A stretch of 37,551 bases of DNA from Planctomycetaceae bacterium (GCA_021297815.1 JAJTGK010000038.1:1-37551); one strand, 5' to 3'; shown: positions 13,262 to 30,615, numbered from the stretch's first letter. Numbers and translations are program-made. The notes: a model not told the origin generated them from the letters alone.

Positions 13262-15127
13262 TCACCTCGGCACAGTATCGCGTCCCGGGACGGGAACTTC
13301 AACCGGCGGCGGCGGCTCGACCGTGGCGAGGTCGCTCGGCGCCGCGGGGTTGCTCGGCGCCGCGGTCTTCTCGGGGTCGAAGTCGGGCCTGCTGACCTGC
13401 TCCTCGTCCTGCTGGCTGCGGAGGATCGCCGCGAGGACGCGGTCCTGCTCGGCCTTGAAGTCGGACTTGATGTAGCCCGCCCGCCAGAGCTGGTGCACCG
13501 CGCCGATCGTCTCGCCGTACGACAGTCCGATGCCCGGGTAGGGCTTCTCGACGGTCGTCTTGTGGCCAAGGAAGGGGATGAACTCCGAGAGCCGCGGGTC
13601 GCTGACCTGGATTTCGGGGCGCGACTCGTCGTTCGGGCGCCAGAAGACCTGGATCTCGTCGTCGATCGAATCGGCCTTCATGAGCAGACGGTTGCTCCAC
13701 GCCGCGTGCGTCAGCGGGCGCTCGACCGCGAGCTCGTTGCCGAAGACGGCGATGGTCGGGCGGCCGCTCTGCGAGACATAGACGAGCGGGATCGAGCTCG
13801 GCACCAGCGCGACATCGAACTTCCCGTCGATGTTCATGCGGGCGATCACGGGGTCCTTGCGCTTGACCAGCGCCTCGTAGGTCGCGAGACGCACATCGAC
13901 ATCGGGGTCGTCGAGCAGCGGACGCAGGCCGATGTCGACATCGGGGTTGAAGTCCATCGCGCCGAGGAGTTCGATCGCCTTCAGCCGGTTCTCGACCGAT
14001 CCGCCCGTCGCAAGCGACAGCAGCGGCTTGACCGCCAGCGGATCGTCGAGCGCCGCACCCGCCTCGAGGGCCGCCATGCGCGGGTTCTCCTCGGGGTAGT
14101 CGTAGAGATCCTCGATGACGGGCAGCGCGCGCTTGCCGAGCGCGCGGAAGCGCCACATCGCGCTGCGGGCGTTGCCAGGGTTCGCGACCAGCGCGCGGCG
14201 CACGGCGAGCGCGGTGGCCTCGGTCGAGGTCACATCGAGCGGCACATGGCGCACGAGCTGGATGAAGTCCTCGGTCTTGCCGTGGTACGACGGCGGCACG
14301 CAGAGGTCGATCGAGTCGGCGTTCTCGCCGCGCGCGGTCTCGGAGTCCTGCTTCGGCTCGCGCGGGAAGGTCGAGTTGATGGCCGACTGGATCGTGCGCG
14401 CGCGCGTGTGGCTCGAGGTCGCGAGCTTCAGCTTGATCGGCAGGTCCTTCGACACGCGGCCGCCGTCGAGGATGCGACCCACGAGCCTGTTCACCGCGTC
14501 GCTGCGCGTGGCGCCAGGTTCGACGAACGGGTTGATGAAGATCGGTCCCTTGCCCTCGGCGATGATCTGCGCCTGGCGCGATCCGACGAGCAGCGGGCCA
14601 GGCCGCAGTTCGGTCGTGTAGAGGCGGCCGCCCTCGAGGCTCGTCACATCGGTGCCGGGAAGCGCGCTCACGCGCAGGTCGAACTTGGTGTCCTCGGTCG
14701 CGCCAGGGGGCACGACGCCTTCGACCACCACGACCGCGGTGTCGGGGCTGTCGAGCATCTTCTGCGGCGTCAGGCCGTCGGGGCTCGACGCGGGGTTGCC
14801 GATGCCGCGGCGCGCGAGTTCCTGCAGCATCATTGCGCGGACTTCGGCGGGCATGAGCCGTCCGCCCGTCTCCTTCAGGCCGACCACGATGCCGTAGCCG
14901 CGCACCACCACGGGCCGCAGGCCGTCGACGACGGTCTCGCTGGCCACGGTGCCGCGCATGATCGGGTCGACATCGAGGACGAAGTTCGCGGCGTTCGCGC
15001 GGTCCTGCTGGGGCTTGGGCGGCACGCGCTCGATGACCTCGCCGCAGCCCGAAAGCGCGGCGACCGCAGCGACGGTCAGGCCGAGGCGGAGCAGGCGCTG
15101 GCGGAGGTGGATGCGGGGGGTCGTCAT
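13262..15127 (-). CDS. Lipoprotein with FlgI-like (P-ring) domain and HEAT repeats
   Basis: The 621-residue product starts with a lipoprotein signal (LGLTVAAVAALSGC, lipobox LSGC). Residues about 45-320 resemble the flagellar P-ring protein FlgI in order and pattern: VVVRGYGIVVGLKETGG, AVVVVEGVVPPGATEDTKFD, VSALPGTDVTSLEGGRLYTT, an IAEGKGPIFINPF strand, GRILDGGRVSKDLPIKLKL and IDLCVPPSYHGKTEDFIQLV. Residues about 340-480 look like HEAT repeats (NPRMAALEAGAALDDPLAVK, ENRLKAIELLGAM, DPDVDVRLATYEALVKRKD). A region mentioning PLVYVSQSGRPTIAVFGNE follows, then a Pro-rich tail. No other flagellar gene is nearby, so a motor role is not implied. The ATG at 15127 has no ribosome-binding site and lies 71 bases after tRNA-Val on the same strand. 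Confidence 0.8.
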   Translation of the reverse strand: MTTPRIHLRQRLLRLGLTVAAVAALSGCGEVIERVPPKPQQDRANAANFVLDVDPIMRGTVASETVVDGLRPVVVRGYGIVVGLKETGGRLMPAEVRAMMLQELARRGIGNPASSPDGLTPQKMLDSPDTAVVVVEGVVPPGATEDTKFDLRVSALPGTDVTSLEGGRLYTTELRPGPLLVGSRQAQIIAEGKGPIFINPFVEPGATRSDAVNRLVGRILDGGRVSKDLPIKLKLATSSHTRARTIQSAINSTFPREPKQDSETARGENADSIDLCVPPSYHGKTEDFIQLVRHVPLDVTSTEATALAVRRALVANPGNARSAMWRFRALGKRALPVIEDLYDYPEENPRMAALEAGAALDDPLAVKPLLSLATGGSVENRLKAIELLGAMDFNPDVDIGLRPLLDDPDVDVRLATYEALVKRKDPVIARMNIDGKFDVALVPSSIPLVYVSQSGRPTIAVFGNELAVERPLTHAAWSNRLLMKADSIDDEIQVFWRPNDESRPEIQVSDPRLSEFIPFLGHKTTVEKPYPGIGLSYGETIGAVHQLWRAGYIKSDFKAEQDRVLAAILRSQQDEEQVSRPDFDPEKTAAPSNPAAPSDLATVEPPPPVEVPVPGRDTVPR

Positions 15128-15198
15128 GGATCGAAGCGGCGTGGTCACGGGCCGAACTGTCCGAACGGCCCCGCGGACGGTTCCGCGCAAGGGCCGAA

Positions 15199-15387: not shown

Positions 15388-18300
15388 GTGCCCGACTCCG
15401 TCCCAGCGCTGAAGGAACTGCTCGACCGCCTGCAGGCGGCGATGCCTGCCGACCGCCGCGAGCTGCGGGCGCGGATCGGCGGCCTGGAGAAGCGGTTCCG
15501 CGAGAAGGGAGTGGCCGACCCGCGTGCGCTCGCCGTGGTCGAGGACGCGCTCGCGCGCTCGATCGCCGAGCGCGAGCGCCGGAAGGGGCTTGTGCCCGCC
15601 GTCAGCTACCCGCCCGAACTTCCCGTGACGGCGGCGCTTGACGCGCTGCGCGAGGCGATCTCGGCGCACCAGGTCGTCGTGGTCGCGGGCGAGACGGGCT
15701 CGGGCAAGAGCACGCAGCTGCCGAAGCTCTGCCTCGAGCTCGGGCGCGGCGTGGCGGGGCAGATCGCCCACACGCAGCCGCGGCGCATCGCGGCGCGCAG
15801 CGTGGCGCGGCGCGTGGCCGAGGAGCTCGGCGTGCGGCTGGGCGGCGCGGTCGGCGTGAAGGTGCGCTTCGGCGACGAGTCGGGGCGCGACACGCTCGTC
15901 AAGGTGATGACCGACGGCATGCTGCTCGCCGAGACGCGCAACGACCCGCGGCTCGACCGCTACGACACCATCATCGTCGACGAGGCGCACGAGCGCAGCC
16001 TGAACATCGACTTCCTGCTCGGCTACCTGCGGCGCCTGCTGCCGCGGCGGCCCGACCTCAAGATCATCCTCACGAGCGCGACGATCGATGTCGATCGTCT
16101 GGCCGCGCACTTCGGCGCGTGCCCCGTGGTCACGGTATCGGGGCGCGAGCACCCGATCGACATCCGCTACCGCCCGCCCGAGGTGCGCGACCTCGACGAG
16201 GAGGATCCGCGCATGCTCGAGCTCGTGGCGCGCGCGGTCGACGAGATCGATGCGTCGTTCGCCGAGGCGCATGCGTCGTCGCGCGCGGTGCCCGCGCGGC
16301 CCGATGTGCTCGTCTTCCTGTCGGGCGAGCGCGAGATCCGCGAGGTCGAGGCGCATCTCAAGGGGAAGTTCGAGGGTTCGGGCGACCGAGGCACCGAGAT
16401 CGTGCCGCTCTTCGCGCGCCAGGGCCTCGAGGAGCAGGAGCGCGTGTTCTCGCCAGGGCCGAAGCGGCGCATCGTGCTCGCGACGAATGTGGCCGAGACC
16501 TCGCTCACCGTGCCGCGCATCCACGCGGTGGTCGACCCTGGTTTCGCACGCATCGTGCGCTACAGCGCGCGTGCGCGCGTGCAGCGGCTGCCCGTCGAGG
16601 CGATCTCGCAGGCAAGCGCGCGGCAGCGCGCGGGGCGCGCGGGGCGCCTCGGGCCGGGTGTCGCGATTCGGCTCTATTCCGAGGAGAATCACGCGGCGCG
16701 CCCCGCGTTCACGCCGCCCGAGATCCTGCGCACGAACCTGGCGAGCGTGATCCTGCAGATGGAGGCGCTCAACCTCGGGAAGGCAGAGGATTTCCCGTTC
16801 GTCGACCCGCCGTCGGGCCGCGCGCTTGCCGATGGCCGCGCCACGCTCGTCGAGCTCGGCGCGTCGACCGCCGAGGGCCGACTCACGAAGATCGGTCGCG
16901 CGATGAGCCTTCTGCCGCTCGACCCGCGGCTTTCGCGCGAGCTGCTCGCGTCGATCGACGAGCGTTGCCTCGGCGACGCACTCGTCGTGGTGGCGGCGCT
17001 TGCGGTGCAGGATCCGCGCATCCGCCCGCAGGAGGAGCGCGCCTCGGCCGACCTCGCGCATGCGCGCTTCCGCGAGCCGCTGAGCGACTTCGTGTCGTTC
17101 CTGCGCCTCTGGCGCGTGTGGCGCGCCGAGACGAAGGACCTCGGTTCGTCGGCGCGCAGGCGCTGGTGCGAGAAGAACTACCTCTCGCACATGCGCATGC
17201 GCGAGTGGGCCGACACGGTGCAGCAGCTGCGCGAGCTCGTCGAGGAGCACTTCAAGATCCGCGCGGGCGAGACATCCGAGGAGCCCGACCAGAACGCGCT
17301 GCACCGCGCGGTGCTGACGGGATTCGCGTCGCACATCGGCGCGCGCAACGACGCGGCGAAGGCCGAGCGCGGCGAGTACCGCGGCCATTCGGGCGCGCTC
17401 TTCCAGATTCATCCGTCGAGCGCGCTCTCGCGGCGCACGCCCAACTGGATCGTGGCGGCCGAGATCGTGGAGACCACGAAGCGGTTCGCGCGGATCTGCG
17501 CGCGCGTGCAGCCCGAGTGGCTCGTGCGCGTCGCGCCGCACCTCTGCACGCGCAGCTGCTTCGAGCCGCACTTCGTCGACGAGACGGGGCAGGTCGCGGC
17601 GTGGGAGCGCACGGCGTTCGGAGAGCTCGTGCTCGTGCCGAAGCGCCGCGTGCCCTTCGGCCCGATCGACGCGGCGGGCGCGCGCAATGTCTTCATCCAG
17701 GAAGGGCTGGTGCAGGGCAGGGCGCGCACCGAGGGCGCGTTCCTGGCGCAGAACCGCGCGCTCCGCGACGAGCTCGAGGCCGAGGAGGCGCGCGGCCGAA
17801 GGCGGGGGCTGCTGCTCGAGGACGACGCGGCGTTCGCATTCTACGACGCGCGTGTTCCTGCCGAGATCCACTCGACGCCGTCGTTCGAGCGCTGGCGCGC
17901 CGATGTGGAGCGGCGCGACCCGCGGCTTCTTGTCATGCAGGAATCCGACCTCCTGCGCGAGGGCGCCGCGCGCGCCGACGCGGCGGCGTTTCCGCGCGAG
18001 GCGCGCCTCGACGAACTGGCCGTTCCGCTCGACTACCGCCACGACCCCGTGGACCACGCCGACGGCGTGACCGCGCGTGTGCCTGTCGAGGCGCTCACGC
18101 TCGTCGACGCATCGCGATTCGAGTGGCTCGTGCCCGGCATGCTGCCCGAGAAGGTCGAGGCGCTCGTGCGCTCGCTGCCGAAGCCGCTGCGCGTGCGGCT
18201 GTTTCCGATCGAGGAGGTCGTGCAGGGCGCGGTCGAGGCGCTCGAGTTCGGGCGCGGCTCGCTCAAGGCGCAGCTCGCGCGGCACCTGTCGCTGGTCGCG

Positions 18301-19407
18301 CAGTGCGAGATCCGCGCCGTCGACTTCCGCGACGACCTGCTGGCGCCGCACCTCTCGATGCGGTTCTCCGTGGTCGATGCGGACGGGAAGGAGCTCGGGA
18401 ACGGCCGCGACCTGGCGGCACTCGCGCAGCGCTTCGCCACCGTCGCCCGCGACCGCCTGCGCGCGAGCATCGACCCCACGACCGACCCCGTGGCGCGTCT
18501 CGAACGCGACCGCGTCGACGAGCTGCCCGACGCGCCGATCCCGCGTGAGGTCGTGTATTCCCGCGCGGGAATATCGCTTCGGGGTCATCCCGCGCTCGTC
18601 GTCGAGCGCGATGCGCCCGGCGAGCGGATCGCGCTGCGCGTCCTCGACCGCGCCGACCGCGCGGAGGCGGCGCACCGAGCGGCGGTGGCGTCGATCGTGG
18701 CGCGCGAGCAGCGCGAGGCGGTCGAGCACCACCTCGCCTACGACCCGCTGTGTGAGGAACTCGTCGCGCGCGCGGCCGACTGGGGCGTCGACGACGCGCT
18801 CGGCGCGGTGGCGCGGCTGGTCGCGATGCAGTCGGTCGCGGAGGCGGGCGACGCACCGCGCGACGCCGCATTCGCGGAGTCGGGCGACGCACCGCGCGAC
18901 GCCGCATCGCTGCTTGCGCTCGTGCGGCGCAGCGCGCCCACGCTGCACGACCGCGTCGCTGTTGTCGTGCGCACGCTGTCGGCGATCCTCGGCGAGGCGC
19001 TCGAGCTCGAGCGCAGGCTGCGCGGCACGCGTGATGGCGCAGGGCGTGCCGCGGTCGCGTCGCGGTTCCACACGATCCTTCGCCGCGGGTCGCTCGATCT
19101 CCTTGCGGCATGCGACCGTGATGAACTCGCGCACCGCCTGCGGCTGCTGCAGATGCTGCGCGAACGCACATCGCGGCTCGCCGAAGACCCCGCGCGCGAC
19201 CAGCGGCACGACGCGGAGTTGGCACCGCTGCGCGAGCAGGTCGCCGAAGCGCTCGCCGACCCGCGCTGCGGCGTCGCCCCGCGCCGCGCGATCGAGCGCA
19301 TGATGGACGAGATCGAGATCAGCCGCTTCGCGCCGCGACTTCCGCGGCAGTTTCCCGCAAGCGAGCGAAGGCTCGAGGCGATGCTCGAGGAATTGCGCGC
19401 TCGCTAG
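15388..19407 (+). CDS. hrpA: ATP-dependent RNA helicase HrpA
   Basis: This is a DEAH-box RNA helicase of the HrpA family, 1339 residues, close to the usual full length of about 1300. Walker A is [20 protein letters not shown] near residue 100. The DEAH box is [20 protein letters not shown] near residue 198, followed by ILTSATID. Motifs IV-VI include [36 protein letters not shown] and [19 protein letters not shown]. The helicase-associated domain and the long DUF3418-type C-terminal region ([40 protein letters not shown]) follow. In other bacteria HrpA resolves stalled ribosomes and processes mRNA. Start is GTG at 15388, without a clear Shine-Dalgarno site. A 36-base in-frame tandem duplication lies near residues 1151-1174. 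Confidence 0.96.
   Translation: [1339 protein letters not shown]
18838..18909 (+). repeat. In-frame 36-base tandem duplication inside hrpA
   Basis: Two adjacent 36-base units, 18838-18873 and 18874-18909, differ at only three positions. They encode [12 protein letters not shown] and [12 protein letters not shown]. The length is a multiple of three, so the frame is preserved. The unit is hydrophilic and probably forms a surface loop or linker. Confidence 0.9.
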
Positions 19408-19497: not shown

Positions 19498-22400
19498 CTA
19501 GATGATGTACGGCCTGAACTTCTCGAGAAGCCCAAGCTCCTCGGAGTGCAGCAGTCCGCGGTTCGTACCGAGCCGGCTCGCGGCGGGGGAGTCGATCAGC
19601 GAACTCGAATCGCTCGGGCTCAGCTGGAACAGCACCTTCCAGTCGAACTCGCGAATGGTGTTGCGGTCGAAGGTGCGCTGCAGCGACGCCAGCGTGTCGC
19701 AGGTCACGACCGTGTGCACGCCCGTCGCGGGGCCTTCACGCAGGATGCCGACGAGCAGCTTGTCGGTCGAGGGCGGCCCGTCGCTTCCGCCGAACGAGAA
19801 GTCGTCCTCGTTGCGGCGCAGCGCGCGGTAGCGCTGGAGCTGGTGGATCACGAGGAACCGTCGCGCGCGTCCCGCGGCATCGCCGCGCTCGTTCACATCG
19901 GCCGCGACCTCGGCGATGCGCGACTCGACATCGCGGAACGCCGTGAACGACGCCTTGATGCTGCGCTCGGTCACCGCGCGCTCGAGCATGCCGTACTCGG
20001 GTGCGTCGGCGGGCGTGCCGTCGAGCACATCGATCGTCGCATCGGGCGCCTCGGCCGCGATCGACAGGATCGCCGCGAGCGCGCTCGACACCGACTGGTC
20101 GTCGCGCGAGCTGATGATCGCCACATTCGCGCCCGCCGCCTTCGCAAGCCGCGCGCAGGTCGGGTCCTTGATCGCGACGGCTTCGCCGAACCAGAGCCGC
20201 ACATTGCCGCGCGGATCGGGCTTCGCGCCGCCCTTCGACGCTGGATGCAGCTTCATCGCCGCGCGCGCGTCTCCCTCGAACACGATCCGCGGCAGCGCGT
20301 CGTATGCGCCCTTCGCCTTGCTCTCGACGCCCGACAGCCAGCCGTCGCGCTTCTCGTCGGGAAGGAACGCCACCTGGAACGGGCTGTTGCCCTCGGTGCG
20401 GCCGCCCGCGTCGTTGTAGATCGCCTCGCCAGGCCGCGACAGAAGGCGCGCCGCAAGGTTCTCGTCGGAGAGGATCAGCTGCGAGTCGGTCTCGCTGCAC
20501 TGGAGCGCGATGCGCACGCCCATCTGGCCCATGGTGCTGCGCGCGAGCGAATAGGCGCCGCCGAGCGTCTGCGAGCCGAGCAGCGCATGCATGCCGAACG
20601 CACGGCCCTGGCGCACAAGTCGGTCGAGCAGCATCGAAGCGCCCTGCGCGACCTTGTCGTCGTCGAGGAAGAACTCCTGGAACTCGTCGATGACGAGCAG
20701 GATGCGCGGCATGCGCACCGTGGGGCGCTCCCTGCGGAAGCTCGCGATGTCCTGCACGCCCGCCTCGCGGAAGAGCTCGCCGCGCCGCGACAGCTCGCCG
20801 TCGAGGCCCTCGAGCACCGACAGGCCGAACTCGCGGTCGGACTCGATCGCGACCGCGCGCGCGTGCGGCAGCGCATGCTCGGCGTAGGTCTTGAACTCGA
20901 CGCCCTTCTTGAAGTCGACGAGCCAGAGCTCGACCTCGTCGGGCGAATACCAGGTCGCAAGGCCCGTGATGATCGCGTGGAGCAGCGTCGACTTTCCCGA
21001 GCCCGTCTTGCCCGCGATGAGCGCGTGCTGGCTCGTGCCTTCGCCAAGCAGGAACTGCTGCAGCCGCGTGGCGCCCGCGCGTCCGATCGGCACCTTCAGG
21101 TTGCGCGCGCTCGAGAGCGACCACATCGCGTCGCCCTTCGGCGCGATCACATCGAACGGCACCTCGACGCGGGCGGCGCTCTTCGCCTCGCGGCCGATGC
21201 GCGCGAGGAGCGGAATCAGCGCGTCGTCGGAGAGCGGCATGTCGAGCGCGAGCGGCAGGTCGGCGAACGGGCCCGCGGCGAAGCGGAAGCCCTGGGGCCC
21301 CGCGCGCACGATCTGGCAGCTCTCGGCGATGGCGTCGGCGCCGAGCCCGTCGGGCAGCGCCGCCTTCTGGTCTCGCAGCAGGATCACATGCACGCCGCAG
21401 CGCTGGCCCGCGCGCAGGATCGAGTTCATGCGCACGGCGGCCTGGTCGCTGAAGTTCGCGGGGAAATCGGCGCACACCAGGAAGCGGTAGGGCTCTGCGA
21501 TCTCGCCCGCGGCCTCGTTGTACGCGTCGATGTCGTTGAACTCGTTGCGCAGGTACTTCTGGATCACCGTCTCCATGTGCTCGGAGAGGTCGGTCAGCTT
21601 CTGCTCGATCGCGCGCGGCTCGGTCCAGATGCGCTCGCCCACGAGCTGCTCGAACTCGTCTCCAAGTCGCATGAACGCCGCGAAGTTCTCGCCAAGCCCC
21701 ACGGGATCGACGAAGGTGAGGCGCACCTTCGACGGCGGAATCGAGGTGAGGAGCCGCGCGACCAGCGCCTGCACCGCGCCGATCGCCGCGGCGCGGGTCT
21801 CGGGCGTGGTCTCGATGACGAGGTTTCCGCGCGAGGGGAATCCGAGCGCCGCGGGAAGGTCGATCCGCGCAGGCATCTCGACATGGTGCTCGCCGTCGGC
21901 AGGAAGGCCGCCCGGAAGCGCCGCGGGCGCCAGCTCGAGCGCGCCGAAGCGGAACCACGGGGCGCGCTCGCGCATCGGTTCGGGCGCATGTCCGCCCCAC
22001 GCTGGCTGGAACCGGCGGTTCACCCGTTCGGCCGCGCAGAGCAGCTCGCGGCACTCGGTCGCGGTCGCGATCCACATCGCGCGCGTGTCGGCGAGGCGAT
22101 CGCGCTCCTCGCGGTCGAGCGACGCGCGCTCTTCCGCGGCGCGCGCCATCTCGGCCTTCTCGCCCTCGACCGCCTCGGACTCGAGCGCCGCGATCGTGCG
22201 CGTGCGCTCGGCATCGGCGCGGCTGCGGGTCGTCCTGCGCTCCGACTCGATCGCGGCCCGCTCGGCGGCCGTGGCTTCGGCCAGCCGCTTCCCGCGCCGC
22301 TCGAACGCGAGCGGAATGTCGGCGATCGGCTCGTCGAGCGCGCCATGCGCCTTCTCTTCCTCGCGGCGCTCGATCTCGCGCAGCTTCGCGACACGCGCGC

Positions 22401-23349
22401 GCGACGCCTCCTCGGCTTCGTGCAGCGCGACGCTGCGCGCGGCATCGATCGACGCAAGGTCGATCTGGAAGGGCAGCCACACGCGCCGCATCGCCTTCAC
22501 CGAGACGATGCGAAGCGCGATCACGATGATCAGCATCACGCCGAGCGCGCCACCCGCCGAGTACGACGCGATGCGCGGCCAGCGCTCGGCGTCGAACATG
22601 GTCACCGCCGCGCCGATCACGCCTGCGCCCGCGACGACGGCCACGAGCAGGATGAACGGCGTCGCGCCCGCAAGCAGCCGCGCCGCGCGCGTCGCGAGGA
22701 TGGCCTCGAGGTGCTGCTCCGCGCTGCGCAGGCTCTCGTCGATCATCGCGCGCGCGCCCGACGGCGGGGGTGGCGGCGGCGGCGCGATCTCGGGCGGGGC
22801 CTTCAGCCGGCAGCGGCGCAGGTACGCGCGGGCCTGGCTGTCGAGGTCGCGCGCCTTGCGCGACGCGGCGGCGAGCTCGTCGCCGAGCGTCTTCAGGCGC
22901 TGGAGTTCGGCCTCCTCGCCCGCCTCGCGCATCGCCTCGGCCATGAGGAGCTTCTCCTCAAGTTCGCGGGTCAGGCGGGCCTGGTCGGAATCGCGACGCT
23001 GCTCGATCTCGAGTTCGCGCGCGGCGTTGCGTTCGTCGAGCCGCTGGACTTTCGAAGCCGCGAGGTCCTCGGCAGCGTTGACCGCCGCCCGGTGCGCGGA
23101 CTCCGCGGCGGCGATGCCGTCGGTCCGCCGCTGGCGAATCGTGCCGATCGCGCGCTCGTGGTCGACGCGCGCCTTCTCGCGGCGCGCCTTCATCTCCTTC
23201 GAGCACGATTCGAGCATGGACGATCGGTCGACGATCGCCTGGCGAAGCCTGCCGACGGTCCGCTCGATGCCGAGCGCGCCATCGCCCTCGCCTGCACGGC
23301 GGATCGGTTCGATGGAAACGGCGTCGACCTCAGGCAGCGGAGCAGACAT
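19498..23349 (-). CDS. Membrane-anchored FtsK/EssC-like ATPase with coiled coils and three ATPase-like modules
   Basis: The 1283-residue protein begins with a charged coiled coil (residues about 25-190) and a poly-Pro linker (APPPPPPPSG). Two membrane helices near residues 225-290 (FILLVAVVAGAGVIGAAVTM; ALGVMLIIVIALRIVSV) precede a second coiled coil to about 440. Three FtsK/SpoIIIE-like modules follow. The first (about 490-700) lacks a Walker A (NLVIETTPETRAAA). The second is intact: ALIAGKTGSGKSTLLHAIIT near 776, RILLVIDEFQEFFLDDD near 883, then RLVRQGRAFGMHALLGSQTL. The third (about 1050-1283) is degenerate (IISSRDDQSVSSAL; RRFLVIHQLQRYRALR). This architecture resembles type VII secretion EssC/EccC, but no WXG100 or FHA domain is visible. 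The ATG at 23349 is preferred over the GTG at 23367. The gene follows topA by 54 bases. Confidence 0.85.
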   Translation of the reverse strand: MSAPLPEVDAVSIEPIRRAGEGDGALGIERTVGRLRQAIVDRSSMLESCSKEMKARREKARVDHERAIGTIRQRRTDGIAAAESAHRAAVNAAEDLAASKVQRLDERNAARELEIEQRRDSDQARLTRELEEKLLMAEAMREAGEEAELQRLKTLGDELAAASRKARDLDSQARAYLRRCRLKAPPEIAPPPPPPPSGARAMIDESLRSAEQHLEAILATRAARLLAGATPFILLVAVVAGAGVIGAAVTMFDAERWPRIASYSAGGALGVMLIIVIALRIVSVKAMRRVWLPFQIDLASIDAARSVALHEAEEASRARVAKLREIERREEEKAHGALDEPIADIPLAFERRGKRLAEATAAERAAIESERRTTRSRADAERTRTIAALESEAVEGEKAEMARAAEERASLDREERDRLADTRAMWIATATECRELLCAAERVNRRFQPAWGGHAPEPMRERAPWFRFGALELAPAALPGGLPADGEHHVEMPARIDLPAALGFPSRGNLVIETTPETRAAAIGAVQALVARLLTSIPPSKVRLTFVDPVGLGENFAAFMRLGDEFEQLVGERIWTEPRAIEQKLTDLSEHMETVIQKYLRNEFNDIDAYNEAAGEIAEPYRFLVCADFPANFSDQAAVRMNSILRAGQRCGVHVILLRDQKAALPDGLGADAIAESCQIVRAGPQGFRFAAGPFADLPLALDMPLSDDALIPLLARIGREAKSAARVEVPFDVIAPKGDAMWSLSSARNLKVPIGRAGATRLQQFLLGEGTSQHALIAGKTGSGKSTLLHAIITGLATWYSPDEVELWLVDFKKGVEFKTYAEHALPHARAVAIESDREFGLSVLEGLDGELSRRGELFREAGVQDIASFRRERPTVRMPRILLVIDEFQEFFLDDDKVAQGASMLLDRLVRQGRAFGMHALLGSQTLGGAYSLARSTMGQMGVRIALQCSETDSQLILSDENLAARLLSRPGEAIYNDAGGRTEGNSPFQVAFLPDEKRDGWLSGVESKAKGAYDALPRIVFEGDARAAMKLHPASKGGAKPDPRGNVRLWFGEAVAIKDPTCARLAKAAGANVAIISSRDDQSVSSALAAILSIAAEAPDATIDVLDGTPADAPEYGMLERAVTERSIKASFTAFRDVESRIAEVAADVNERGDAAGRARRFLVIHQLQRYRALRRNEDDFSFGGSDGPPSTDKLLVGILREGPATGVHTVVTCDTLASLQRTFDRNTIREFDWKVLFQLSPSDSSSLIDSPAASRLGTNRGLLHSEELGLLEKFRPYII

Positions 23350-23363: not shown

Positions 23364-23403
23364 ACACGGTTGCCCGCGCCGCAGGACGCGCCGCGGGTCG
23401 GCA

Positions 23404-26244
23404 TCACGACGCCTTGCGCTTCGGCTTCTTCTCGCCGACATGCAGCGCCGCGACGAACGGCTCCGCGATCGCCTCCGCAGATCGGTACGGGCTGATCTCG
23501 GTGGTCGGATCCTGCGGCTTTCCGCTCGCGTCGGGGTGCACGGGCAGCGTGACCACGCTCTCGGGCAGAATGAGTTCGGTCACGGGAAGACCCGCCTCGA
23601 CCTCGCGCCCATCGCGCCTGCGCAGCGTGGCGGGGCGGTTGGCGGACTCGTGCCGCTCGAGCGCCGCGAGCAGCGCCTTCTGCTTCTCGGGCGAGAGCGC
23701 CTTCCAGTCCGCGCGCCCGCGGCACTTGGGGAACCCGCTGCAACCGAGCCACGGCCCGCGCTTCCCGTTGCGCACATTGCACGGCTTGCCGCACTTCGTG
23801 CACACGACCTCGGGGTCCTGCAGCGCGGGCGCCGAAGGCAGCACGATGCGGTCCTTCTTGTCGAGCCGCACCACATACTTCACCGCGGGGTAGCTCACGC
23901 TCGTGATGTACTTGCCGAACTTGCCGCTGCGCAGCACCATCGCCGAGCCGTCGATGGGGCACACGAGGTCGAGCGCCACATCGGAGACGGGCTCGCCCTC
24001 CTCGTTGAGCCGCGACGCGAAGTCGCAGTCGGGGTAGCCCGAGCACGACAGGAACCAGCGCCCGCCGCCCACGCGCTCCTTCGTGCGCTTGCCGCACTTC
24101 GGGCAGGCGTAGCGCGACCAGCGGTAGAGCGGCACCTCGCGCATCCGCGCGAACGATTCCTCGGCCTTCGCGCCCTCGAGCTGCGCCTTGACCTCGCGGA
24201 GGATCTCCTTCCAGTCCTCCTCGTTCGCCTCGACCTTGTCGAGGCGCGCCTCCATGCGGCGCGTGTACTCGTAGTCGAAGAGCAGCGGGAACCCGCCCAC
24301 AAGCAGCGACACCACCGCCTCGCCGAGCGCGGTCGCGAAGAAGCGCCGCGACTTCTGCTCGACATAGCCGCGCGACTCGATCGTGTTCACGATCGACGCG
24401 TAGGTGCTCGGGCGGCCGATGCCGCGCGCCTCGAGCTCCTTCACGAGCGACGCCTCCGAGTACCGCGGCGGCGGCGAGCTGAACTTCTGCAGCGCGTCGA
24501 TCGACACGCCCGCGAGCTCGTCCTTCACCGCAAGCTTCGGGAAGGTGGCCTCGACCTCGTCGTCGCCCGTCGAGATGTCGTCGACGAGCTTCAGGTAGCC
24601 GTCGAACACCACGACGCTGCCCGACGCGCGCACCATCGCGCCCGTCGTGCGGTCGCTGCGCTCGAGCGTGACCACGGTCTGGTCGTACTCCTTCGGCGCC
24701 ATCTGGCAGCCGACGAAGCGGCGCCACACGAGCTCGTACAGCGCGAACTGCTCGGCGGTCAGCGCCCCGCGCACGCGGTCGGGCGTGCGGAACGGGTCGG
24801 TCGGCCGGATCGCCTCGTGCGCCTCCTGCGCGTTGGCCGCAGGCGCGTAGAAGTTCGGCTTCTCGGGCAGGTAGCGGTCGCCGTACTCGCGCTTGATCAG
24901 GTCGCGCGCCGAATGCAGCGCCTCGCCCGCGATGTGCGTCGAGTCGGTGCGCATGTAGGTGATCAGACCCACGCGGTCGCCGCCGAGGTCGATGCCTTCG
25001 TAGAGCTGCTGCGCGATGCGCATCGTGCGGTCGGTCGAGAAGCCGAGCTCGCCCGACGCGGCCATCTGCATGGTGCTCGTCTTGAAGGGCGGAGGCGGGC
25101 GGCGCGTCTTGCGCGTGGTCTCGACGCCCGTCACGCGGTAGGCGACCTTCGCGCCGATCGTGCCCGCGACCGAGCGCACGAAGCGCGCGGCGCCCTTCGC
25201 CTTCGCGTCCTCGCGCAGCGAGATCTTCACGCCCTCGAGGCCCGCCGCCTCGACCGCGGCCTTCACCTCGGCCGAAAGGTCGCGCGGCGTCACCGCGTCG
25301 GCGTCGGCGCGCAGGTCGAACTCGGCGCCGCCAAGCGCGACGAGCCGCGCCTCGAGCACGCCTTGCTTCGAGAGGAAGGCCAGGCGCTCCTTCTGCGCGG
25401 GCGCGCGTCCGCGGTCGTCGCGGCGCGCGAGGAACTCCGCGATCGCCTTCGCGACCGCCTCGCGGCGCGCAGCGTCAGGCGTGAGCCGCACGAGCACCTC
25501 CCACGACTCTTCGGGCACGAACTCGCGGATCTCCTGCTCGCGCTCGACGACGAGGCGCGCGGCCACCGTCTGCACGCGGCCCGCGCTCAGGCCGCCCTGG
25601 CGCATCATGCGCCAAAGGACGGGCGAGATGCCGTAGCCCACGATGCGGTCGAGGATGCGCCGCGAGTTCTGCGCGTTGACGCGCGACATGTTGATCGCGC
25701 GCGGATGCTCGAACGCCTCGCGGATCGCGCTCTTCGTGATCGCGTTGAACACGACGCGCTTCGCCTTCGCGGGGTCGACCTCGAGCACCTCGGCGATGTG
25801 CCACGAGATCGCCTCTCCCTCGCGGTCAAGGTCGGTGGCGAACCACACATCGGTCGCGGCCTTCTTCAGCTTGCGCAGCTGCGCCACGGTGTCGCGGCGG
25901 TCGGGCGTGACCACATAGGTCGTGGCGAACGACTCGAGGTCGACGCCTGGGATGTCCATCTTCTTCGGCTCGCGCGGTGCGGCCTCGCCCTTCTTCGCGC
26001 GGACGGGCTTCTTCTTCGGCGCATCGGGGTCGACCTTCTTCTCGGCACGCTCGGGCAGGTCGCGAATGTGGCCCTTGCTCGCCTCGACATGGAACTCGCC
26101 GAGCTCCTTCAGGTACTTCTCGATGGTCTTCGCCTTCGCGGGGCTCTCCACGATGACCAGCGCGCCGCCCTGGGGAACATCGCCGCTCGAAGCGCGGGAC
26201 TTCGTGGCGGTGCCTGCCGTTCGCGTGGTCTTCTTCGCTGCCAT
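23404..26244 (-). CDS. topA: DNA topoisomerase I (type IA)
   Basis: This 946-residue enzyme relaxes negative supercoils by a tyrosine-linked single-strand break. The Toprim domain contains ALVIVESPAKAKTIEKYLKE and the metal site WFATDLDREGEAISWHIAEV near residue 138. The active-site Tyr is in RVGLITYMRTDSTHIAGEAL near residue 428. RILDRIVGYGISPVLWRMM and GLSAGRVQTVAARLVVERE are also canonical. The C-terminus has zinc ribbons: an intact one (YACPKCGKRTK with CSGYPDC), a degenerate one that has lost most cysteines (LVCPIDGSAMVLRSGKFGKY), and another intact one (VCTKCGKPC with CSGFPKC). A Lys/Pro-rich insertion of about 30 residues follows SKGHIRDLP. It is the central gene of a minus-strand run pgk-miaA-topA-ftsK-like. 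Confidence 0.97.
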   Translation of the reverse strand: MAAKKTTRTAGTATKSRASSGDVPQGGALVIVESPAKAKTIEKYLKELGEFHVEASKGHIRDLPERAEKKVDPDAPKKKPVRAKKGEAAPREPKKMDIPGVDLESFATTYVVTPDRRDTVAQLRKLKKAATDVWFATDLDREGEAISWHIAEVLEVDPAKAKRVVFNAITKSAIREAFEHPRAINMSRVNAQNSRRILDRIVGYGISPVLWRMMRQGGLSAGRVQTVAARLVVEREQEIREFVPEESWEVLVRLTPDAARREAVAKAIAEFLARRDDRGRAPAQKERLAFLSKQGVLEARLVALGGAEFDLRADADAVTPRDLSAEVKAAVEAAGLEGVKISLREDAKAKGAARFVRSVAGTIGAKVAYRVTGVETTRKTRRPPPPFKTSTMQMAASGELGFSTDRTMRIAQQLYEGIDLGGDRVGLITYMRTDSTHIAGEALHSARDLIKREYGDRYLPEKPNFYAPAANAQEAHEAIRPTDPFRTPDRVRGALTAEQFALYELVWRRFVGCQMAPKEYDQTVVTLERSDRTTGAMVRASGSVVVFDGYLKLVDDISTGDDEVEATFPKLAVKDELAGVSIDALQKFSSPPPRYSEASLVKELEARGIGRPSTYASIVNTIESRGYVEQKSRRFFATALGEAVVSLLVGGFPLLFDYEYTRRMEARLDKVEANEEDWKEILREVKAQLEGAKAEESFARMREVPLYRWSRYACPKCGKRTKERVGGGRWFLSCSGYPDCDFASRLNEEGEPVSDVALDLVCPIDGSAMVLRSGKFGKYITSVSYPAVKYVVRLDKKDRIVLPSAPALQDPEVVCTKCGKPCNVRNGKRGPWLGCSGFPKCRGRADWKALSPEKQKALLAALERHESANRPATLRRRDGREVEAGLPVTELILPESVVTLPVHPDASGKPQDPTTEISPYRSAEAIAEPFVAALHVGEKKPKRKAS

Positions 26245-28827: not shown

Positions 28828-29868
28828 ATGAGCCTTCCATTCGACCTCCGTCTCCTCGCCGTTCCCGCCATCGTGATTTCCGCCAGCATCGGCTCGACCG
28901 CCGCCGCCGACGGCCTCAAGGTCGGCTCCGACGCCCCCGCGCTCAGCGTGGAGTGGGTCCAGGGCGAGGTCGCCAGCCTCTCCGACCCGAGCAAGACCTA
29001 TGTCGTCGAGTTCTGGGCGACCTGGTGCGGGCCGTGCATGCGCTCGATTCCGCATCTGAACGAGCTCTACGCGAAGCACCGCGGCCAGGGCCTCGTGATC
29101 ATGGGCATCAGCGACGAGCCGATGTCGACGGTCCGTCCGTTCGTGAACAAGAAGGGCGGCGCCATGGCCTATCCCGTCGCGTGCGACAAGGAGAAGGCCA
29201 CGAGCGAGGCGTGGATGAAGGCCGCCGGCCAGAACGGCATTCCGTGCGCGTTCGTCGTGCGCGAGGGCAAGATCCGTTGGATCGGCAACCCGCTCGACAA
29301 GCAGTTCGACACCGTGGTGCTCGGCGTCCTCACGGGCCGCTACAACCCCGAGCTCAGCAAGAAGGCGGAGCCTGCGCTCAGCGCCGCGCGTTCGGCCGTG
29401 CGCCTCAAGAACTTCAAGGACGCGTACAAGCACTACGACGCGGTCATCGCGCTCGATGCCCGCGTGTTCGGCGATGTCGCGGTCCGCAAGTACCGCACCA
29501 TGATCGTCGACCAGAAGGATGCCGCCGCCGCCGCTGCATGGGGCCAGCAGATGCTGCAGACCTATGCGAGCGATCCGATGACGCTCACCGAACTCGCCGA
29601 GGTCATCCTCAAGGACGACGCCATCGTCGACCGCGACCTCAAGCTCGCGACCTCGGCCGCCGAGCGCGCCGACTCGACGGCGCCGAGCGCGTCCTCGAAG
29701 GCCCTCGTCGCGCTGGTCCGCTTCCGCGCGGGCGACCTGAACGCCGCCTCGGAAATGCAGTACGAGGCGTGGATGCGCGCCGAGCCCACCGAGAAGTCGG
29801 ACTACAAGAAGGTGCTCGACACCTACAAGAAGGCGCAGGCGACCAGCGCCGCCAAGTCGGGCTCCTGA
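28828..29868 (+). CDS. Exported TlpA-like thioredoxin-fold protein with a helical C-terminal domain
   Basis: The 346-residue product has a Sec signal peptide (LLAVPAIVISASIGSTAAA) followed by a TlpA/AhpC-type thioredoxin domain. The redox motif is VVEFWATWCGPCMRSIPHLN (CGPC). GQNGIPCAFVVREGKIRWIG contains the cis-Pro loop, oddly with a third Cys directly after the Pro. KEKATSEAWMKAAG matches the family's central insertion region. After about residue 170 comes an all-helical, Ala/Lys-rich domain (RSAVRLKNFKDAYKHYDAVI, VALVRFRAGDLNAASEMQYE) that looks TPR-like. It is probably a periplasmic thiol oxidoreductase or its partner. A 12-bp hairpin after the gene may terminate its transcript, but that hairpin also lies in the proposed rpe reading frame. 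Confidence 0.88.
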   Translation: MSLPFDLRLLAVPAIVISASIGSTAAADGLKVGSDAPALSVEWVQGEVASLSDPSKTYVVEFWATWCGPCMRSIPHLNELYAKHRGQGLVIMGISDEPMSTVRPFVNKKGGAMAYPVACDKEKATSEAWMKAAGQNGIPCAFVVREGKIRWIGNPLDKQFDTVVLGVLTGRYNPELSKKAEPALSAARSAVRLKNFKDAYKHYDAVIALDARVFGDVAVRKYRTMIVDQKDAAAAAAWGQQMLQTYASDPMTLTELAEVILKDDAIVDRDLKLATSAAERADSTAPSASSKALVALVRFRAGDLNAASEMQYEAWMRAEPTEKSDYKKVLDTYKKAQATSAAKSGS

Positions 29869-29889
29869 CGCCCGCACCCGCGCCCTCGG

Positions 29890-29895
29890 TATGCT
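29890..29895 (+). promoter_or_regulatory. -10 element TATGCT for a leaderless rpe mRNA
   Basis: TATGCT, preceded by CGG, is followed by six bases (TCGCGC) and the ATG at 29902, exactly the spacing found at 5943, 8363 and 30625. There is no Shine-Dalgarno sequence. Confidence 0.5.
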
Positions 29896-29901
29896 TCGCG
29901 C

Positions 29902-30615
29902 ATGACCAAGGCCGCGACCCAGGTTGATTCTTCGACGGCCCCCGTGTTCGGGGGCCGTCGTCTTTCTCGCACGCCCGTGCTCGTCGCGCCCTCGATCCTG
30001 AGCGCCGACTTCGCGCGGCTCGGCGACGAATGCCGCGCGGTGCTCGCCGCGGGCGGCGACCTGCTGCATGTCGATGTGATGGACGGCCACTTCGTGCCGA
30101 ACCTCTCGATGGGGCCTGCCGTCTGCGCCGCCGTGCACGCCGCGCTGCCCGAGGCATACCTCGATGTCCATCTCATGGTCACCGACCCCGCGCACTACAT
30201 CGAGCCCTTCCGCAAGGCGGGCGCCGCGCACATCACCTTCCACGCCGAGGTCGTGCCCGACCCGAAGGCGCTCGTGGCCGAGATCCGCGCGAAGGGCATG
30301 TCGGCGGGCGTCGCGATCAACCCCGACACGCCCGCGTCGGCGCTGATTCCGTACCTCGGCGACATCGACCTCGCCCTCGTGATGAGCGTGCACCCGGGCT
30401 TCTCGGGGCAGTCGTTCATCGCGCGCGTCCTCGAGAAGACCCGCGCGATCCGCGCCGCCGCGCCCGCGGGGCTGCGCATCCAGATGGATGGCGGCGTGTC
30501 GCCCGACACCGCGCCTGCGTGCCGCGAGGCGGGCTGCGATGTCCTCGTCGCCGCAAGCGCGATCTACGGAACGCCCGACTACGCCGCCGCCGTCCGCGCG
30601 ATCCGCGGCGGCTGA
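29902..30615 (+). CDS. rpe: Ribulose-phosphate 3-epimerase
   Basis: Rpe interconverts ribulose 5-phosphate and xylulose 5-phosphate in the pentose phosphate pathway. The TIM-barrel landmarks are VLVAPSILSADFARLGDE, DLLHVDVMDGHFVPNLSMGP (metal-binding His and catalytic Asp), YLDVHLMVTDP, GVAINPDTPASALIPYL, VMSVHPGFSGQSFI, RIQMDGGVSPDTAP (second catalytic Asp) and VLVAASAIYG. The length is 237 residues from the ATG at 29902. This gives a tail of about 25 residues before APSILSAD that homologues usually lack. An in-frame GTG at 29977 would give the usual N-terminus. The ATG is kept because it sits six bases after a TATGCT -10. A terminator-like hairpin covers codons 11-20. accD follows 21 bases later. 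Confidence 0.95.
   Translation: MTKAATQVDSSTAPVFGGRRLSRTPVLVAPSILSADFARLGDECRAVLAAGGDLLHVDVMDGHFVPNLSMGPAVCAAVHAALPEAYLDVHLMVTDPAHYIEPFRKAGAAHITFHAEVVPDPKALVAEIRAKGMSAGVAINPDTPASALIPYLGDIDLALVMSVHPGFSGQSFIARVLEKTRAIRAAAPAGLRIQMDGGVSPDTAPACREAGCDVLVAASAIYGTPDYAAAVRAIRGG
29933..29966 (+). terminator. 12-bp hairpin with T-rich tail inside the 5' end of rpe
   Basis: CGACGGCCCCCG (29933-29944), loop TGTT, CGGGGGCCGTCG (29949-29960), then TCTTTC. The stem is perfect over 12 base pairs. It looks like an intrinsic terminator for the upstream TlpA-like gene. It lies after the proposed rpe start, so it could instead work as an attenuator of rpe. Confidence 0.62.

What the first reader, a model, noticed from the sequence alone, without database searches (positions are those of the whole stretch)
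19498..23349. EssC-like triple-module ATPase with flanking coiled coils but no type VII partners
The protein has two membrane helices between coiled coils and then three FtsK/SpoIIIE-like modules, only the middle one with intact Walker A and B. Modules two and three show parallel endings (RIALQCSETDSQLILSDENL and LFQLSPSDSSSLIDSPAASR), which indicates internal duplication. This is the plan of EccC/EssC, but FHA domains, WXG100 substrates and other T7SS genes are absent, and the gene sits behind topA. It could be a type VII-like exporter motor with unknown substrates or a DNA pump coupled to supercoil control.
Basis: partly seen in the sequence, partly recalled or inferred. Interest (0 to 1): 0.72.

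Follow-up and report, generated by a model that had tools for sequence, protein, structure and literature searches.

The report
Type VII-like export motor, partners displaced
This gene makes the membrane motor of a small type VII-secretion-like system of planctomycetes; its partner genes, which include a WXG100 protein, are on another contig of the same genome, so the motor is not an orphan, although secretion itself is still unproven.

Summary
The protein is real: 1283 residues, two membrane helices between coiled coils, then three FtsK/SpoIIIE-type modules of which only the middle keeps its Walker motifs. By fold, its three-module part matches EccC/EssC of type VII secretion best over its whole length.

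"No type VII partners" holds for the window, not for the genome. In relatives the gene closes a four-gene cassette: WXG100 protein (A), long helical hairpin (C), second short WXG-like protein (B), motor. All three partners are in the window's genome on another contig, in the order C-B-A. In the window's genus and nearby lineages the motor sits apart, behind topA. Across 151 related genomes, A was never found without the motor.

EsaB/YukD, EssB/YukC and LXG toxins were not found. Most likely this is a reduced type VII-like exporter in a two-membrane bacterium. Export is inferred; plasmid relatives with a nuclease toxin and its likely immunity gene inside the cassette support it.

The general kind was noted in one footnote in 2012 (PMC3482391). 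The fixed four-gene set, the split locus and the near-universal chromosomal occurrence in one family are new as far as the library shows. The DNA-pump idea is not supported.

The parts
19498..23349 (-). EssC/EccC-like motor gene, 1283 aa (alternative GTG start at 23367)
   Evidence: Pfam FtsK_SpoIIIE 7.6e-35; NCBIfam EccCa 4.6e-38 (below its equivalog cut-off); best PDB sequence hit EccC 4nh0 3.5e-36; full-length homologues in most genomes of the family
22795..23217 (-). N-terminal coiled coil (about residues 45-185)
   Evidence: composition only; approximate limits
22498..22656 (-). two membrane helices, residues 232-250 and 266-284
   Evidence: Kyte-Doolittle maxima 2.50 and 2.38
22030..22467 (-). 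second coiled coil (about residues 295-440)
   Evidence: composition only; approximate limits
21160..21945 (-). module 1, degenerate FtsK-type domain (residues 469-730)
   Evidence: model pLDDT 85.5 for the whole region; hhalign with module 3 E 1.2e-8; no P-loop
20311..21159 (-). module 2, intact FtsK-type ATPase (residues 731-1013); Walker A at 20986-21012, Walker B at 20677-20700
   Evidence: Pfam FtsK_SpoIIIE; invariant motif residues in 49 homologues
19501..20280 (-). module 3, degenerate FtsK-type domain (residues 1024-1283), conserved EKFRPY end
   Evidence: hhalign with module 2 E 6.3e-10; profile hits EssC 5fv0/4lya 1.5e-4
23404..26244 (-). topA, upstream neighbour; conserved only in this genus and close lineages, not part of the system
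   Evidence: TIGR01051 1.3e-205; synteny
15388..19407 (+). hrpA, convergent neighbour; not part of the system
   Evidence: TIGR01967 E 0; synteny

Best explanation
The gene encodes the motor of a reduced type VII-like export system typical of planctomycetes and related phyla. Shown: the system has four proteins. They are the membrane motor, a WXG100 hairpin protein (A, 90 aa, W-R/K/Q-D at the bend), a second short WXG-like protein (B, about 70 aa), and a long antiparallel helical hairpin (C, two 72-residue helices in the model; some members carry an extra C-terminal domain). In most relatives the order is A-C-B-motor. In the window's genus the motor sits behind topA, and C-B-A stay together elsewhere on the chromosome. 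Inferred: A and B bind the hairpin of C to form a folded helical bundle that is the substrate or carrier. The bundle docks on the degenerate modules of a membrane-anchored motor multimer. ATP hydrolysis in the middle module drives the bundle across the cytoplasmic membrane, as EccC/EssC does. In distant plasmid relatives the slot of C holds a larger protein, once with a nuclease at its end and an immunity gene beside it, so C is most likely the exported carrier and the ancestral cargo was probably a toxin. How cargo would cross the outer membrane is unknown.
For: Fold: EccC 4nh0 is the first Foldseek match (E 1.5e-32, 888 columns); 707 residues align along the full tandem, 488 with EssC 4lya. 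Linkage: 48 of 61 homologue loci with enough upstream sequence carry A, C and B, 9 of the 13 others being the topA group, and cassette members are on the motor's strand. Co-occurrence in 151 genomes: both 90, motor only 7, A only 0, neither 54; in the order-level set of other families 15 both and 45 neither with no exception. WXG100 identity of A: Pfam WXG100 match in all 13 members scanned, over the cut-off in the member shown; profile hits solved WXG100 proteins HP0062 1e-12, EsxB 5e-10, EsxA 1e-5. In 12 genomes, all 9 with the motor have exactly one WXG100 over cut-off and the 3 without have none. Partners in the window's own genome in order C-B-A. Plasmid relatives: Helicobacter A - nuclease (WHH) - SMI1/KNR4 - 77 aa - motor; Caballeronia and Rhodococcus similar.
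Against: No secretion data were found for any member of this branch. No pore or outer-membrane partner was identified: EsaB/YukD, EssB/YukC and EccB gave no match over cut-off in 12 genomes (EccB had no positive control). No toxin domain was seen in the planctomycete C proteins examined. A kinase, phosphatase, VWA and CARF set beside one plasmid relative and a TerD domain in another could point to an intracellular conflict role. The window's motor is physically separated from its partners, so functional partnership there rests on co-occurrence. NCBIfam scores are far below the EccC/EssC equivalog cut-offs. Which EccC domains the three modules correspond to is unresolved.
Confidence: 0.62

Rival explanations
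1. The four proteins form an intracellular or membrane-bound conflict or stress machine that uses WXG-like hairpins as adaptors and exports nothing.
For: No pore or outer-membrane part found; no toxin domain seen in planctomycete C proteins; a plasmid relative lies with VWA, CARF, PP2C phosphatase and kinase genes; another motor carries an N-terminal TerD domain near other TerD genes; some C proteins end in an Imm33-like domain.
Against: The motor resembles EccC/EssC over its full tandem; WXG100 proteins with such a motor are the two parts common to type VII systems (PMC11217815); the Helicobacter relative has a toxin and its likely immunity gene inside the cassette.
Confidence: 0.25
2. A DNA translocase, possibly coupled to topoisomerase I and supercoiling.
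For: The middle module matches the FtsK motor domain best as a single domain (Z 32.4, 282 residues); topA is directly upstream and conserved there in the genus and close lineages.
Against: No gamma domain match; two of three modules lack nucleotide motifs; a separate FtsK candidate lies on contig C169; outside the topA group the cassette upstream is WXG100 genes, not topA; motor and WXG100 are present or absent together.
Confidence: 0.06
3. In the window's lineage the motor is a decaying leftover that no longer works with C-B-A.
For: The locus is split; three of 16 genomes of the genus show no A.
Against: The frame is intact in the window's genome and, where the contig allows, across the genus at 61-68% identity with motifs kept; C-B-A are intact and together in the genus; the three genomes without A are incomplete or strongly fragmented.
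Confidence: 0.05

Closest known systems
Three-module YueA-like ATPase with solo WXG proteins, noted for planctomycetes, verrucomicrobia, proteobacteria and others (Zhang et al. 2012, PMC3482391, Table 1 footnote 6)
   Same: Three HerA/FtsK domains with only the middle one active; WXG protein partner; planctomycetes and verrucomicrobia are named.
   Different: The footnote calls them mobile and names no further parts. Here there is a fixed four-gene set with a second WXG-like protein and a long hairpin, near-universal chromosomal occurrence in one family, and a lineage in which the motor has split off.
HP0062 and its FtsK/SpoIIIE-linked cluster in Helicobacter pylori (PMC3397514; PDB 3fx7)
   Same: Closest solved relative of protein A (E 1.3e-12); hairpin with W-R-D at the bend; clustered with an FtsK/SpoIIIE protein according to the paper.
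   Different: The H. pylori cluster itself was not examined here. Its function is unknown.
Type VII secretion systems a to j of Actinomycetota and Bacillota (PMC11217815)
   Same: EccC/EssC-type motor plus WXG100 protein, the two parts common to all.
   Different: Cell envelope with two membranes; no EsaB/YukD or EssB/YukC found; no FHA domains; long coiled coils flank the membrane helices; active module in the middle.
LXG toxins with small helical partner proteins (T7SSb)
   Same: Comparison from memory: long helical targeting domain encoded with two short WXG-like partners.
   Different: No sequence match to LXG over cut-off; planctomycete C mostly has no toxin domain.
FtsK DNA translocase
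   Same: Motor domain fold of the middle module.
   Different: No gamma domain; tandem of three modules with two dead ones; WXG100 partners.

Membership tests
Type VII secretion system (broad sense) | EccC/EssC-type membrane motor with tandem FtsK/SpoIIIE modules | tested here: met
   4nh0 and 4lya aligned along the tandem; two membrane helices. Score is far below the NCBIfam equivalog cut-offs.
Type VII secretion system (broad sense) | WXG100 hairpin protein encoded with or co-occurring with the motor | tested here: met
   PF06013 over cut-off in the own genome and 8 others with the motor, none of 3 without; cassette linkage
Type VII secretion system (broad sense) | motor-dependent secretion of the WXG100 protein | not testable with these tools
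   needs experiment
T7SSb | EssB/YukC membrane protein | tested here: not met
   none over cut-off in 12 genomes; B. subtilis control positive
T7SSb | EsaB/YukD ubiquitin-like protein | tested here: not met
   none over cut-off in 12 genomes; B. subtilis control positive
T7SSb | FHA domains at the N-terminus of EssC | tested here: not met
   no FHA match up to E 1
T7SSa | EccB | tested here: inconclusive
   none over cut-off in 12 genomes, but none of the control genomes was positive either
T7SSa | EccD, EccE, MycP | not tested
   not searched
Solo-WXG, three-module system of Zhang et al. 2012 | three FtsK/HerA modules, only the middle one active | tested here: met
   (activity judged from motifs only)
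Solo-WXG, three-module system of Zhang et al. 2012 | WXG protein partner | tested here: met
Solo-WXG, three-module system of Zhang et al. 2012 | mobile (the footnote says 'appear to be'; a remark rather than a definition) | tested here: inconclusive
   in this family the motor is in 82 of 91 genomes examined and no plasmid record covers 80% of it, which speaks against mobility here; patchy in other families of the order; more distant plasmid relatives do exist
FtsK DNA translocase | C-terminal gamma domain | tested here: not met
   no match in Pfam up to E 1; a separate FtsK candidate with an FtsK-type C-terminal region is on C169
LXG toxin (for protein C) | LXG domain | tested here: not met
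   no PF04740 match over cut-off in 12 genomes; B. subtilis control positive

The most novel reading that the evidence does not exclude
A four-protein type VII-like exporter works across the cytoplasmic membrane of bacteria with two membranes, with none of the known pore proteins, exporting a WXG-WXG-long-hairpin complex as its own product; it is inherited vertically in a planctomycete family and functions there even though motor and substrate genes have separated.
Probability: 0.35. Interest if true: 0.75.

Novelty: new variant of a known kind. Interest (0 to 1): 0.52.

Why it matters
A recent survey places type VII secretion only in Actinomycetota and Bacillota, with subtypes a to j (PMC11217815). 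Here a motor plus WXG100 set, reduced to four genes, is nearly universal in one planctomycete family and reaches Verrucomicrobia and Lentisphaerae. If it exports, it is close to the smallest set of type VII parts, and it raises the question of how cargo passes two membranes. It also gives a family context to HP0062, a solved Helicobacter protein without a known function. The split locus in the window's lineage allows motor and cargo genes to be tested separately.

Tried and rejected
DNA pump tied to topA: rejected because the topA neighbour is limited to one genus and close lineages. Orphan motor: rejected because the partners were found in the same genome. True FtsK: rejected because there is no gamma domain and a separate FtsK candidate exists. 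Toxin-carrying planctomycete C proteins: none seen; the longer ones examined end in an Imm33-like domain or in nothing known. Known fold for C: no Foldseek match under E 0.001, and VIA-align matches (Z about 10-11) are within what long helices give by chance. Which EccC domain each module corresponds to: structure pairs modules 1-2-3 with ATPases 1-2-3 in order, while sequence puts module 2 nearest to ATPase 1; the profile of module 1 alone had no hit; left open. Homology of the C-slot proteins of Helicobacter and Caballeronia with C: not significant by profile; only position, size and helical make-up agree; the Rhodococcus one is a weak match (E 3e-6). An iterated B profile was contaminated with A sequences; the cleaned profile still detects all 59 A proteins among 10,844 reading frames, but at best E 4e-5 and at worst 0.2, with one unrelated frame at 0.1, so B as a WXG100 relative is likely, not certain. 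A paper on the FtsK-HerA superfamily was not held.

Full report
What is in the window. The gene at 19498-23349 (-) encodes 1283 residues. Pfam finds FtsK_SpoIIIE (7.6e-35, best stretch 773-928) and no FHA or FtsK gamma domain. The nearest NCBIfam models are EccCa (4.6e-38), EssC (1.5e-25) and EccCb (8.8e-24), all far below their equivalog cut-offs. Two hydrophobic helices (232-250, 266-284) lie between charged stretches with coiled-coil composition. The best PDB sequence matches are EccC proteins.

Three modules. An alignment of 49 homologues over residues 469-1283 gave a model with mean pLDDT 85.5. Foldseek ranks EccC 4nh0 first (E 1.5e-32 over 888 columns), then EccC 4n1a and EssC 4lya, and FtsK only after them. 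With VIA-align the single FtsK motor domain has the highest Z (32.4 over 282 residues), but only EccC and EssC align along the tandem (4lya Z 29.1, 488 residues; 4nh0 Z 28.6, 707 residues, rmsd 11.3, probably because the domains sit differently). Profile comparison shows that modules 2 and 3 are related (E 6e-10) and so are 1 and 3 (E 1e-8); 1 and 2 are not linked directly by sequence. Walker A and B are conserved only in the middle module.

Relatives and their neighbours. A scan of bacterial genomes found at least 386 relatives; the best 80 came from Planctomycetota, Verrucomicrobia, Lentisphaerae and a few bins labelled otherwise. Clustering of flanking reading frames showed three genes upstream on the same strand: a 90-residue WXG100 protein (A), a protein of about 165-360 residues (C) and a short protein of about 70 residues (B). 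48 loci have all three. 13 others have at least 1.6 kb upstream without the full set; 9 of these are the window's genus and close lineages, with topA in that place, and one more (L024) has C and B with A beyond the contig edge. The remaining 19 are cut by contig edges, and some with a little upstream sequence hold B, or C and B.

The partners of the window's motor. Profiles of A and C find single strong matches in the window's genome on contig C15 (A: 28951-29220, E 1e-43; C: 29674-30141, E 1e-47; both -). Reading that region shows C, B and A in a row; C and B overlap by a few bases and B and A are about 30 bases apart. Eleven other genomes of the genus carry the same C-B-A order, and in one more only A is visible beside a contig edge. 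In two genomes motor and C-B-A lie on one contig, about 180 kb and 110 kb apart, so the split is not an assembly effect.

Co-occurrence. Among 151 related genomes, 97 have the motor and 90 have A. A was never found without the motor. The seven genomes with motor only are mostly incomplete or fragmented. In 60 genomes of other families of the order, 15 have both and 45 neither (Fisher test; genomes share ancestry, so the p-value is not a strict probability). In a set of 12 genomes the only Pfam WXG100 match over cut-off is A, present in the nine with the motor and absent from the three without.

What A, B and C are. All 13 A proteins scanned match Pfam WXG100; the profile matches solved WXG100 proteins, first HP0062 of Helicobacter pylori, then EsxB and EsxA. 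The hinge reads W-R/K/Q-D; HP0062 is described with W-R-D, as a hairpin dimer, and in a cluster with an FtsK/SpoIIIE protein (PMC3397514). B shares the W-x-D motif and is weakly but consistently related to A. C models as two antiparallel 72-residue helices (pLDDT 90 or more over most of them) with no close known structure. Some longer C proteins end in an Imm33-like domain.

Other type VII parts. EsaB/YukD, EssB/YukC and LXG domains have no match over cut-off in 12 genomes, with Bacillus subtilis positive as control; EccB also has none, but without a positive control.

Distant relatives. No plasmid record covers most of the window's protein, but three carry related cassettes. In Helicobacter sp. 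NHP19-012: A, a 340-residue protein ending in a WHH nuclease domain, an SMI1/KNR4 protein, a 77-residue protein, motor. In Caballeronia sp. SBC2: A, a 436-residue protein, a 113-residue protein, a 76-residue protein, motor, then CARF, VWA, phosphatase and kinase genes. In Rhodococcus sp. AH-ZY2: motor with an N-terminal TerD domain, a 314-residue C relative, a 73-residue protein, A. A proteins are clear in all three (E 1e-26 to 3e-15); the link of the C-slot proteins to C is by position and size except for Rhodococcus (weak profile match). The nuclease with its likely immunity gene suggests that the C slot carries exported toxins in some branches.

Prior knowledge. Zhang et al. [quoted passage not shown] This is the same kind. 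Garrett et al. 2024 recognise ten type VII subtypes, all in Actinomycetota and Bacillota (PMC11217815). Searches of the library found no paper that describes the planctomycete set further.

Judgement. That this is the motor of a WXG100-linked, type VII-like set is close to certain on linkage, co-occurrence and fold. That it exports A, B and C is inferred from the family; I put it at about 0.6. An intracellular role is the serious rival. The DNA-pump idea has little support.

Noticed in passing
13262-15190 (-): A predicted lipoprotein-like protein combines a flagellar P-ring FlgI domain (8e-24) with HEAT repeats (2e-7); whether it is flagellar is unclear.
   Followed up: no
L031:5710-10838: In one planctomycete the motor gene follows what look like murE, murF and mraY (named from sequence by eye), without the A-C-B cassette upstream.
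   Followed up: partly
L043:10761-12311: A second, truncated motor fragment (53% identical to the window protein, lacking the P-loop part) lies about 3 kb behind a complete cassette.
   Followed up: no
L017, L019, L059 (protein C): Long C proteins end in an Imm33-like domain (PF24719), an odd place for an immunity-type domain if C is exported.
   Followed up: partly
L171:8172-13326: On a Caballeronia plasmid the cassette is followed by CARF, VWA, PP2C phosphatase and kinase genes, and a further VWA gene stands before it.
   Followed up: no
[quoted passage not shown]
   Followed up: partly
L017, L027, L045, L052 (upstream of the cassette): Four loci share an ABC-type permease and two further membrane-associated genes, GldG-like by eye, upstream of the cassette.
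   Followed up: no
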